Shown piece after piece: positions 51,306 to 53,990 of a stretch of DNA of 64,000 bases. Origin of the DNA: Stutzerimonas nosocomialis (GTDB taxonomy: Bacteria; Pseudomonadota; Gammaproteobacteria; Pseudomonadales; Pseudomonadaceae); assembly GCF_005876855.1 (NCBI RefSeq), contig NZ_QLAE01000003.1:62001-126000 (forward strand), in the 5' to 3' direction. Every line of letters starts with the position of its first letter. Position 1 is the first letter of the stretch. The notes beneath the pieces were generated by a model. It was given only the letters and a program-made list of their open reading frames with translations. It was not told the origin of the DNA and did not search any database. Made by a program: the position numbers and the translations under genes.

Positions 51306-51334
51306 TTGCCTGAATACGAGCCAGACAAGATACT
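51306..51334 (+). promoter_or_regulatory. Promoter of the radical SAM/UdgX cassette
   Basis: TTGCCT at 51306-51311 and GATACT at 51329-51334 are 17 bases apart, about 30 bases before the ATG at 51364. The LexA box begins inside the -10. Confidence 0.6.
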
Positions 51335-51348
51335 GTATATAAACACAG
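51333..51348 (+). promoter_or_regulatory. LexA (SOS) box
   Basis: CTGT, eight AT-rich bases (ATATAAAC) and ACAG form a perfect match to the CTGT-N8-ACAG core of gammaproteobacterial LexA boxes. It overlaps the -10 of the cassette promoter and ends 15 bases before the start codon, a classical repressing position. Confidence 0.85.
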
Positions 51349-51363
51349 CTAACGGTCTCCGTC

Positions 51364-52575
51364 ATGGAACTCATCGACAAGCTCACGGTGCTCGCCGACG
51401 CAGCCAAGTATGACGCGTCCTGCGCCAGCAGCGGAGCGCCACGGCGCAGCTCGAAAGGCCGCAACGGCCTCGGCGCCACCGATGGTACGGGAATCTGCCA
51501 CAGCTTCACGCCCGACGGTCGCTGCGTCTCGCTGCTCAAGGTCCTGCTGACCAACTTCTGCCTGTACGACTGCCAGTACTGCGTCAATCGCCGCTCCAGC
51601 AACGTGCCGCGTGCCCGCTTCACGCCGGAGGAGGTGGTACGCCTGACGCTGGATTTCTACCGGCGCAACCTCATCAGTGGCCTGTTCCTGAGTTCGGGCA
51701 TCATCCGCTCGGCCGACTACACCATGGAGCAGCTGACCCGCGTCGCCAGGCTGCTGCGCGAAACGCACGAATTTCGCGGCTACATCCATCTCAAGACGAT
51801 CCCCGACGCCGACCCGCTGCTGATCGCCGAAGCCGGGCGCTACGCGGATCGGTTGAGCGTGAACGTGGAGTTGCCCACCGAGGATGGGCTGACACGCCTG
51901 GCCCCGGAAAAAAGCGGAAGGACCATCCGCCAGGCCATGGGCCAGATCCGCCTGGGCGTCGAAGCGACCGAGGGGGAACCCCGCGCGCCCTCGTTCGCCC
52001 CCGCCGGGCAGAGCACGCAGATGATCATCGGCGCCGACGCCACCGACGACAGCGCCATCCTGCGCACCGCCCAGCGCCTCTACGGCGCCTATGGCCTCAA
52101 GCGCGTCTACTACTCGGCATTCAGCCCGATCCCGCAAAGCCCGAACTCAGTACCGCTGCAACCGCCGCCGCTGTTGCGCGAGCACCGCCTCTACCAGGCG
52201 GACTTCCTGTTGCGTGGCTATGGCTTCCGGGTCGACGAGCTGCTCGGCGGCCCAGGCAACCTGCCCCTGGACATCGACCCGAAGCTGGCCTGGGCGCTGA
52301 GCCACCGCGAGCAGTTCCCCCTCGACCTGAACCGAGCCGAGCCGATGCTGATCGCGCGGGTGCCCGGCATCGGCGTGCGCAATGCCAAACGGCTGGTCGA
52401 GCTGCGTCGTGAACGACGGATTCGCTATGCCGACCTGATTCGCCTGCGCTGCGCCATGGACAAGGCCAGGCCCTTCATCGTCACCCAGGACTACCGCCCC
52501 CGGGAGGCGACGCTGGAGTCGTCCGCGCTGCGCCGCCAGCTCAGCGATCAGCCGGCGCAGATGGCGCTGTGGTGA
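51364..52575 (+). CDS. Putative DNA modification/repair radical SAM protein (UdgX-linked)
   Basis: The 403-residue protein has the radical SAM cluster motif CLYDCQYC (CX3CX2C) near residue 63, preceded by GTGICHSFTPDGRCVSLLKVL. A C-terminal helix-hairpin-helix (ARVPGIGVRNAKRLVELR) suggests DNA binding. It matches the spore photoproduct lyase-related group that is linked to UdgX genes. Its stop overlaps the next gene (GTGGTGA). The LexA box in front suggests DNA-damage induction. The substrate lesion is unknown. Confidence 0.88.
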   Translation: MELIDKLTVLADAAKYDASCASSGAPRRSSKGRNGLGATDGTGICHSFTPDGRCVSLLKVLLTNFCLYDCQYCVNRRSSNVPRARFTPEEVVRLTLDFYRRNLISGLFLSSGIIRSADYTMEQLTRVARLLRETHEFRGYIHLKTIPDADPLLIAEAGRYADRLSVNVELPTEDGLTRLAPEKSGRTIRQAMGQIRLGVEATEGEPRAPSFAPAGQSTQMIIGADATDDSAILRTAQRLYGAYGLKRVYYSAFSPIPQSPNSVPLQPPPLLREHRLYQADFLLRGYGFRVDELLGGPGNLPLDIDPKLAWALSHREQFPLDLNRAEPMLIARVPGIGVRNAKRLVELRRERRIRYADLIRLRCAMDKARPFIVTQDYRPREATLESSALRRQLSDQPAQMALW

Positions 52576-53990
52576 TCCACTCCTTCGAAGACTGGCGCCA
52601 GGAGGCCAAACGCCTGGTGCTGGCCGGCGTCGCGCCACACGAGGTGGACTGGCAGGGTCATGCCGGGCTGCTCGGCGGCCTGTTCGATGCGACGTGCAAT
52701 GGTGAACCACCGAGAGCACTGCGTATTCCGCGCGCCCTTCCGGAACTGCTGGCCAGCGCCGCGCGCTTTCGCGCCGAGGATCGCTGGGCCCTGCTGTACC
52801 GGGTGCTCTGGCGCGTCGCGGCGGGTGACCGAAGCGCGATGCTGGCCGGCGACATCGATGGCAGCGAGCTGCACCGGCGCATCAGGGCGGTACGTCGCGA
52901 AGCCCACCACATGCACGCCTTTCTGCGTTTTCGCCCCTGCCAGGCGAGCGACGTCGAATTCATCGCCTGGCACGAGCCGGCCCACGAGGTACTGGACCTG
53001 GGGGCTGAGCATTTCATCGGCCGCATGGGCCGGACGCGCTGGGCGATCGCGACGCCCGACGGGGCGGCCTGCTTCGATGGCCGGGCGCTGCGCTATAGCC
53101 ACCCCTGCCCGCCGGCCCTGATGCGGCTGGCCAGGGAGGGCGACGAGCGCGACGATGCCTTGTGGCAGACCTACTACCAGAGCACCTTCAACCCGGCGCG
53201 GCTGAACGAGAAGGCCATGCGCGGCCATATGCCGGTGCGCTTCTGGCAGCACCTGCCGGAGGCCCGCCTGATCCCGCAGATGGTCAGCGAAGCCCGGGCC
53301 GGGCAGCAGCGCCTGGCGCAGGCCGCGGATGTCGGCGAACGCGGCGGCAAGGCGGTATTGATTGCCCGTGAGCGGGCCCAGCCCGCGCGCCCGGCCACCA
53401 GCGCCCTGCAGGACTGCCAGGCCTGTGCGATCTGGCGCAACGCCACCTGCGCCGTGCCCGGCGAAGGTCCGCAGCAGGCATCGATCATGCTGGTCGGCGA
53501 ACAGCCCGGCGATCTCGAGGACCTGGCGGGCCGCCCCTTCGTCGGGCCGGCCGGACAGGTGCTGAACGACGCGCTGCGCGCGGCAGGGCTCGGGCGCGAC
53601 GGACTTTACCTGACCAATGCGGTCAAGCATTTCAAATGGGAGCCCCGCGGCGGCCCCACCAGTCGAGGCGCCACGCGCCTGCACGCCAGCCCCAAGCCCG
53701 CCGAGATCCAGGCCTGCCGTCCCTGGCTGGATGAAGAGTTGAATCGGGTACGTCCGCAGGTCGTGGTTGCGCTCGGCCGCACGGCACTGGCGTCATTGCT
53801 CGAGGTGCACGACCCGCAGCGCATTCGCCTGGCCGATTTCAGCGGCCAGCCGATGCGCCATAAAGACTTCTGGTTGCTGGTGGCGCCTCACCCGGCGGCG
53901 ATTCTGCGAAGCCGGGAAGGCGGAGAGATGCGGCGCGCCGAGCTGGTTGCCGCACTGAAGCAGGCGAACCAGCTGGCGAAGGAGGCTTAG
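52569..53990 (+). CDS. DUF4130-UdgX fusion, uracil-DNA binding/crosslinking protein
   Basis: Residues about 1-240 are the DUF4130-type domain found with this cassette (FIAWHEPAHEVLDLGAEHFIGRMGRTRWAIATP). Residues about 270-473 are a UdgX-type family 4 uracil-DNA glycosylase with cluster cysteines (CQACAIW, CRPWL), GEQPGDLEDLAGRPFVGPAG and VAPHPAAILR. The UdgX loop histidine that bonds covalently to DNA is retained in ATRLHASP. The start is GTG at 52569 (or 52572), overlapping the radical SAM gene. The stop overlaps that of convergent pilU. Confidence 0.9.
   Translation: MVIHSFEDWRQEAKRLVLAGVAPHEVDWQGHAGLLGGLFDATCNGEPPRALRIPRALPELLASAARFRAEDRWALLYRVLWRVAAGDRSAMLAGDIDGSELHRRIRAVRREAHHMHAFLRFRPCQASDVEFIAWHEPAHEVLDLGAEHFIGRMGRTRWAIATPDGAACFDGRALRYSHPCPPALMRLAREGDERDDALWQTYYQSTFNPARLNEKAMRGHMPVRFWQHLPEARLIPQMVSEARAGQQRLAQAADVGERGGKAVLIARERAQPARPATSALQDCQACAIWRNATCAVPGEGPQQASIMLVGEQPGDLEDLAGRPFVGPAGQVLNDALRAAGLGRDGLYLTNAVKHFKWEPRGGPTSRGATRLHASPKPAEIQACRPWLDEELNRVRPQVVVALGRTALASLLEVHDPQRIRLADFSGQPMRHKDFWLLVAPHPAAILRSREGGEMRRAELVAALKQANQLAKEA

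What the first reader, a model, noticed from the sequence alone, without database searches (positions are those of the whole stretch)
51306..53990. SOS-controlled radical SAM + DUF4130-UdgX repair cassette
The sequence shows a perfect CTGT-N8-ACAG LexA box overlapping the -10 of a two-gene unit with overlapping reading frames. The genes encode a radical SAM protein with a DNA-binding helix-hairpin-helix and a DUF4130-UdgX fusion. UdgX is known to bind uracil in DNA covalently. What the radical SAM partner repairs or modifies is not established, and LexA control would place both in the damage response. The cassette sits where P. aeruginosa carries other genes, consistent with an accessory insert.
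Basis: partly seen in the sequence, partly recalled or inferred. Interest (0 to 1): 0.75.

Follow-up and report, generated by a model that had tools for sequence, protein, structure and literature searches.

The report
SOS-controlled radical enzyme DNA repair operon
This looks like a DNA-damage-controlled two-gene bacterial operon for a radical-chemistry enzyme and a partner with an optional uracil-trapping domain; its kind is already known, and what it repairs is still unknown.

Summary
A perfect CTGT-N8-ACAG box (51333-51348) ends 15 nt before a radical SAM gene (TIGR03916) that overlaps a DUF4130-UdgX gene. About 0.6 such boxes per window arise by chance, so conservation is the evidence: with ACAG, CCAG or TCAG ends it lies within 60 nt of the start in 102 of 104 gamma/beta loci, and 25 of 29 alphaproteobacterial loci carry the alpha LexA motif instead.

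LexA control of this gene pair is already predicted in print: the radical SAM gene plus an unknown gene in Clostridium (PMC3828012), and a UDG operon in Bacteroidetes and others (PMC8565304). It is a new member of a known kind.

The cassette is near-core here: 47 of 56 genomes of the genus, own included, have it, with the same flanking genes. And UdgX is optional: over cut-off in 3 of those 56 and decayed in two, while the box, the radical SAM gene and DUF4130 persist. The conserved unit is radical SAM + DUF4130.

Unexplained: Xanthomonadaceae cassettes carry GTCTCA-N5-TGAGAC, shared with uvrA and a helicase gene, unlike both lexA autoregulatory boxes.

The parts
51306..51334 (+). putative promoter TTGCCT-N17-GATACT; -10 overlaps the LexA box
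   Evidence: by eye; NATACTGT in 92 of 97 distinct upstream sequences; strict scan found none
51333..51348 (+). LexA box CTGTATATAAACACAG, 15 nt before the start codon
51364..52575 (+). radical SAM protein, 403 aa (TIGR03916, rSAM_link_UDG), with C-terminal helix-hairpin-helix-like motif
51421..51525 (+). N-terminal segment with three further invariant cysteines C20, C45, C54 (possible second metal site; inference)
   Evidence: invariant in the 35 rows and the 3; pLDDT under 50 there
51559..51582 (+). radical SAM CxxxCxxC motif (C66, C70, C73)
   Evidence: invariant
52321..52413 (+). helix-hairpin-helix-like segment
   Evidence: Pfam HHH_3 21.1 bits, below its 27-bit cut-off; RuvA/ComEA sequence hits at E 0.3-0.6
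52569..53990 (+). DUF4130-UdgX fusion protein, 473 aa; start overlaps the radical SAM stop by 7 nt
52569..53264 (+). DUF4130 domain (TIGR03915), the conserved partner
   Evidence: model pLDDT 85
53397..53957 (+). UdgX domain (TIGR03914), optional module
   Evidence: absent from most genus cassettes
53682..53684 (+). codon of His372, equivalent of M. smegmatis UdgX His109 (covalent residue)
   Evidence: role of His109 from PMC10359453 (passages)

Best explanation
A LexA-repressed repair operon. In undamaged cells LexA sits on 51333-51348 and blocks the promoter whose -10 it overlaps; RecA-stimulated LexA cleavage frees it (control inferred from sequence; RecA/LexA chemistry established). The operon makes two coupled products. 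The radical SAM protein binds DNA through its C-terminal helix-hairpin-helix and uses a 5'-deoxyadenosyl radical on a damaged nucleotide (inferred). DUF4130 is its conserved partner, probably helping to bind the lesion or the enzyme (inferred). The UdgX domain, intact by motif here, is a detachable module that would excise uracil and bond covalently to the resulting abasic site, holding the complex at, or shielding, deaminated sites (inferred from M. smegmatis UdgX). The core function is radical SAM + DUF4130, since pseudomonads repeatedly lack UdgX but keep the other two parts and the box. The lesion is unknown; my guess is a damaged pyrimidine.
For: Box at the same place in 102 of 104 gamma/beta loci, NATACTGT in 92 of 97. 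Among 80 named loci, within 150 nt of the start: beta 17 of 18 and gamma 14 of 24 exact CTGT-N8-ACAG, alpha 25 of 29 with the GAAC/GTTC-N7 repeat, Verrucomicrobia 1 of 2; no gamma or beta locus had the alpha motif and no alpha locus the CTGT one; tiles elsewhere 5 (CTGT), 9 (alpha) and 2 (Verrucomicrobia motif) of 4302. Nine of the ten gamma misses have one mismatch. A divergent second type in the family has the exact box in 3 of 5. Own genome: 11 distinct CTGTAT-N6-ACAG sites, reversed-pattern control 0; six have nearby genes I could name by eye, among them recA, umuD, yebG, a dnaE2-like gene and this cassette; the main lexA has two one-mismatch boxes. UdgX over cut-off in 3 of 56 genus genomes, two more at 141 and 108 bits. 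Of 147 loci 57 are fused (three of them decayed), 86 have DUF4130 without UdgX, 1 has UDG in a separate frame, 2 are cut by the locus end, 1 (L072) ends before DUF4130. The covalent His is missing only in L003, L033, L065 of 58 UDG domains. The window's UdgX is under purifying selection, dN/dS 0.145 to its nearest fused relative. Independent prediction: radical SAM + unknown gene under LexA in C. acetobutylicum (PMC3828012, passages).
Against: No expression or LexA-binding data for this operon. The 80 named loci are the best 80 of 590 confirmed, so distant members are under-sampled. Xanthomonadales loci lack the Xanthomonas LexA1 motif, 0 of 7. Five of the 11 own-genome boxes have neighbours I did not name, and neither lexA gene is among the 11 exact sites. 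Most genus genomes show weak TIGR03914 hits (25-36 bits) to some other protein, so another uracil glycosylase may act in trans. No activity is known for DUF4130 or this radical SAM family. The HhH hit is below its cut-off. The partnership rests on adjacency, not on shown contact.
Confidence: 0.65

Rival explanations
1. UdgX is the business end: the operon is a uracil base-excision system that cleans up after SOS error-prone polymerases, and the radical SAM protein assists it.
For: PMC8565304 (passages) calls the COG1573-COG4277 operon a putative UDG-based base excision repair system serving SOS. The catalytic His is kept in 55 of 58 UDG domains.
Against: 86 of 147 loci have DUF4130 shown without UdgX, and such loci in the genus still carry the LexA box. 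Among 56 genus genomes no UdgX over cut-off lies outside the cassette, though weak hits do.
Confidence: 0.15
2. The radical SAM protein modifies normal DNA (a marking or hypermodification system) rather than repairing lesions.
For: NCBIfam calls it 'modification/repair'; no substrate is known.
Against: Damage-type operators in several clades; stable chromosomal site in the genus.
Confidence: 0.1
3. The box is a chance match and the operon is not under LexA.
For: 0.6 exact boxes expected per window of this size; strict promoter scan negative.
Against: Conservation of place and sequence in 102 of 104 loci and replacement by the alpha motif in 25 of 29 alpha loci.
Confidence: 0.03

Closest known systems
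CAC3343-CAC3344 of Clostridium acetobutylicum, predicted LexA target (PMC3828012, passages)
   Different: Clostridial LexA box; no UdgX is mentioned; that CAC3344 is DUF4130 is my guess, not tested.
SOS-regulated COG1573-COG4277 operon of Bacteroidetes, reported earlier for Verrucomicrobia and Alphaproteobacteria (PMC8565304, passages)
   Same: A UDG-family gene paired with a second gene, under the host's LexA. I take COG4277 to be this helix-hairpin-helix radical SAM family; that equation is recalled, not tested.
   Different: Here in Pseudomonadaceae with CTGT-N8-ACAG; UDG fused to DUF4130; UdgX missing in most relatives in the genus.
NCBIfam TIGR03916 / TIGR03915 / TIGR03914 linked families
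   Same: All three models match over their cut-offs.
   Different: Nothing seen; a plain member.
Mycobacterium smegmatis UdgX (PDB 6iod, 6ajo, 6ail and others)
   Same: GEQPG motif, R-loop Arg and His, HP....R motif; best E 4.4e-41.
   Different: Fused behind DUF4130; R-loop has a short insertion and reads ATRLH instead of KRRIH.
SplB-like radical SAM gene of the SOS regulon (PA0069-like, by recall)
   Same: Also a radical SAM gene behind a LexA box in this genome (L200; named by eye).
   Different: Separate gene; the window's protein matches TIGR03916 alone in NCBIfam.
Lipoyl synthase
   Different: 12% identity; cysteine spacing differs; this segment is low-confidence in the model.

Membership tests
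LexA/SOS regulon | LexA box at the promoter | tested here: met
LexA/SOS regulon | box conserved in orthologues | tested here: met
   102 of 104 gamma/beta loci; alpha motif in 25 of 29 alpha loci; not met for Xanthomonadales with the LexA1 motif, 0 of 7
LexA/SOS regulon | LexA binding and damage induction | not testable with these tools
   needs bench work
TIGR03916 radical SAM | score over curated cut-off | tested here: met
   542.8 against 343.5 bits
TIGR03916 radical SAM | CxxxCxxC cluster motif | tested here: met
   C66, C70, C73 invariant
UdgX (TIGR03914) | score over curated cut-off | tested here: met
   209.1 against 189.95 bits
UdgX (TIGR03914) | GEQPG, R-loop R and H, motif B | tested here: met
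   GEQPGD 310-315, R370, H372, HPAAILR 441-447
UdgX (TIGR03914) | covalent bond to the abasic site | not testable with these tools
   needs purified protein
Family-4 UDG | score over curated cut-offs | tested here: not met
   NF040953 127.2 against 250; TIGR00758 124.7 against 125.3
SOS COG1573-COG4277 operon | gene pair identity | tested here: inconclusive
   COG4277 as this radical SAM family is recalled; no COG search run
SplB spore photoproduct lyase | match to SplB family or fold | tested here: inconclusive
   the one NCBIfam hit is TIGR03916; a fold row for SplB was not among the 50 shown, which does not exclude it
DHH/RecJ phosphoesterase (for DUF4130) | fold similarity | tested here: inconclusive
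DHH/RecJ phosphoesterase (for DUF4130) | profile similarity to RecJ | tested here: not met
   hhalign probability 0.1% against 15 RecJ, taken from 20 loci
Lipoyl synthase-like auxiliary cluster | three N-terminal cysteines binding a second Fe-S cluster | tested here: inconclusive
   cysteines invariant but segment 20-54 has pLDDT under 50

The most novel reading that the evidence does not exclude
The radical SAM protein is a lipoyl-synthase-like enzyme with a second, N-terminal iron-sulphur cluster (C20, C45, C54) that carries out radical chemistry new to DNA repair on a lesion held by DUF4130; UdgX is an add-on that pins the complex covalently at deaminated sites. In Xanthomonadaceae the operon has moved to a third, LexA-independent damage regulator that reads GTCTCA-N5-TGAGAC and also controls uvrA and a COG1205-type helicase.
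Probability: 0.12. Interest if true: 0.8.

Novelty: new member of a known kind. Interest (0 to 1): 0.4.

Why it matters
It narrows an open question. I found no reported activity for DUF4130 or this radical SAM family, yet the pair sits behind LexA-type boxes in several bacterial classes with different LexA motifs. Because pseudomonads carry versions with intact, decayed and absent UdgX, in Stutzerimonas at one chromosomal site, the part played by UdgX, whose physiological role PMC10359453 (passages) calls largely unknown, can be separated from the core by comparing close relatives.

Tried and rejected
Recent accessory insert: rejected for this genus. UdgX as the essential partner: disfavoured. 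DUF4130-only pseudomonads as one clade (36 of 43 pseudomonad rows): rejected, p-AU 4e-5, with the two decayed UdgX rows L033 and L065 counted as fused; this test uses 61 of the 147 loci. Losses rather than gains is my reading, since the 18 beta and most alpha and Xanthomonadales rows are fused. In one search's tree (127 rows) L052 and L124 were labelled DUF4130-only although the locus end cuts them.

DUF4130 as a RecJ/DHH enzyme: weak fold similarity, no profile support (unrelated control pair 0.3%). Pfam scan of 33 DUF4130 members: only PF13566 matched more than one member. SplB was not among the 50 fold rows shown, which proves nothing.

Xanthomonadaceae operator as a lexA1 or lexA2 site: 4 lexA genes carry TTAG-N6-TACTA boxes and 5 carry GTACAAATGTAC; of 11 lexA genes one (L240, Rhodanobacter) has a GTCTCA-type site, one mismatch, 153 nt upstream, and one (L237) none of the three. 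Against its being a pure damage operator: a one-mismatch version recurs near an mraZ-like gene in four genomes (L184, L186, L187, L188; named by eye), and one genome gave 2 matches to the reversed control at one mismatch.

Scripts that failed and were redone: regex, no rows; offset error, redone in 41; TM2 in a wrong frame, redone in 47; its pilT result stands; R-loop regex undercounted, replaced by 90; its dN/dS stands. The Verrucomicrobia and Caulobacter papers are not held and are known only through PMC8565304.

Full report
What is there. The window shows a radical SAM gene at 51364-52575 and a DUF4130-UdgX gene at 52569-53990, overlapping by 7 nt. The first matches TIGR03916 at 543 bits and the second TIGR03915 and TIGR03914, all over curated cut-offs. 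The box CTGTATATAAACACAG at 51333-51348 ends 15 nt before the first start codon. A box of this form is expected 0.6 times per shuffled window, so the match alone proves nothing.

Is the box real? In 47 loci of the genus 42 have an exact box at the same place; the other five have CCAG in place of ACAG (read). Over 104 gamma and beta loci (L001-L047, L053-L109) 102 have the box with ACAG, CCAG or TCAG within 60 nt of the start, and 92 of 97 distinct upstream sequences read NATACTGT, so a -10 hexamer overlaps the box. Two loci (L071, L073) repeat genomes already present as L038 and L011. Among 80 named loci, the best 80 of 590 confirmed, sorted into clades by me from the record titles, the exact motif counts within 150 nt are: beta 17 of 18, gamma 14 of 24, alpha 25 of 29 with the GAAC/GTTC-N7 repeat, Verrucomicrobia 1 of 2 (that site also reads CTGT-N8-ACAG), Xanthomonadales 0 of 7 with the LexA1 motif. 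No gamma or beta locus had the alpha motif and no alpha locus the CTGT motif. Control tiles elsewhere in the same loci gave 5 (CTGT), 9 (alpha), 2 (Verrucomicrobia) and 0 (LexA1) of 4302. Of the ten gamma misses nine have the box with one mismatch at the same place. The clade motifs are recalled, not from a call. The window's genome holds 11 distinct CTGTAT-N6-ACAG sites against 0 for the reversed pattern. Six have nearby genes that I could name by eye: this cassette, recA, umuD, yebG, a dnaE2-like gene and a SplB-like radical SAM gene; I did not place the other five. Two lexA genes score over the family cut-off; neither is among the 11 exact sites, but the main one has two one-mismatch boxes upstream.

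Where it sits. 47 of 56 genomes of the genus, own included, have the radical SAM gene. All 47 loci hold the TM2 gene and 44 hold pilT; three loci are too short to reach it. The nine genomes without the cassette have TM2 and pilT some 80-480 nt apart, with no hit to either cassette protein. In the family 174 of 298 genomes have a match, 171 over the cut-off, in 10 of 19 genera. Elsewhere, 158 of 72,556 plasmid records (E 1e-30) and 10 of 50,697 phage records (E 1e-10) have a match; the one phage record I opened looks like bacterial chromosome.

UdgX is optional. In 147 loci, 57 have a UDG domain fused to DUF4130, 86 have DUF4130 and a stop with no UDG, one (L121) has a UDG hit in a separate frame, two (L052, L124) are cut by the locus end, and one (L072) ends before DUF4130. 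In the genus 5 of 47 are fused: 3 of 56 genomes have UdgX over cut-off, all in the cassette, and two have remnants of 141 and 108 bits; most genomes also show weak hits of 25-36 bits elsewhere, to some other protein. The remnants L003, L033 and L065 (the last from another genus of the family) lack the covalent histidine that the other 55 of 58 UDG domains keep. The window's UdgX has all motifs and, against its nearest fused relative, dN/dS 0.145, close to DUF4130's 0.135 and above the radical SAM gene's 0.076. On a radical SAM tree of 61 loci the DUF4130-only pseudomonads are not one clade (p-AU 4e-5, remnants counted as fused). DUF4130-only cassettes in the genus keep the LexA box, so the conserved SOS unit is radical SAM + DUF4130.

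Xanthomonadaceae. All five loci have GTCTCA-N5-TGAGAC starting 39-45 nt before the radical SAM start; the two other Xanthomonadales loci, L110 and L112, do not. In three genomes searched exactly there are 7 sites: three at the cassette, three before a helicase gene (best NCBIfam hit TIGR03817, below cut-off on partial proteins for L169 and L173; L174 by eye), one before uvrA; reversed control 0. With one mismatch, seven genomes hold 42 places, of which I read part: helicase genes again (L180, L197), imuA (L193), an AlkB-like gene (L192), a lexA gene in Rhodanobacter (L183), but also a place near an mraZ-like gene in four genomes and several without a clear neighbour. Nine of 11 lexA genes there carry other boxes. 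The regulator is unknown.

Prior work. [quoted passage not shown] PMC8565304 (passages) predicts SOS control of a COG1573-COG4277 operon in Bacteroidetes and cites earlier reports in Verrucomicrobia and Alphaproteobacteria. PMC13130816 (passage) reports a radical SAM protein of this name up-regulated on desiccation in Acinetobacter; PMC9848294 lists one in its Fusobacterium co-culture expression table, in rows near uvrC; PMC9611098 only lists one. PMC3765255 (passages) calls DUF4130 a predicted mutagenesis-related enzyme. PMC10359453 (passages) gives the UdgX motifs. PMC10776899 and PMC3323433 were seen in passages. PMC3910556, the fifth paper, was not opened. I found no paper on this cassette in Pseudomonas or Stutzerimonas from searches, in an open-licence library only.

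Noticed in passing
L113, L115, L116, L126, L129 (39-45 nt before the radical SAM start); L169, L172, L173, L174: Inverted repeat GTCTCA-N5-TGAGAC shared by the cassette, a COG1205-type helicase gene and uvrA in Xanthomonadaceae, unlike the lexA1 and lexA2 boxes; regulator unknown.
   Followed up: partly
L184, L186, L187, L188: A one-mismatch version of that repeat recurs near an mraZ-like gene in four Xanthomonadaceae genomes (named by eye).
   Followed up: no
L200, own genome G000 contig C10 near 26175: A second, SplB-like radical SAM gene lies behind a LexA box in the same genome (named by eye), so two radical SAM genes may be in its SOS set.
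   Followed up: no
L048-L052: A more divergent radical SAM + DUF4130 pair in other Pseudomonadaceae genera, no UdgX seen (L052 is cut by the locus end); three of five have an exact LexA box.
   Followed up: partly
L243 (CAKLQH020000003.1): Record named Acinetobacter phage MD-2021a carries glyS, glyQ and the radical SAM gene; looks like bacterial chromosome.
   Followed up: no
plasmid records, e.g. L244 (Phaeobacter inhibens pP72_a): 58 of 158 plasmid records with the radical SAM gene are Phaeobacter; the one opened has it next to a UdgX-family gene.
   Followed up: no
own genome G000 contig C8:8062-8664: A second lexA gene (186 bits) besides the main one (256 bits).
   Followed up: no
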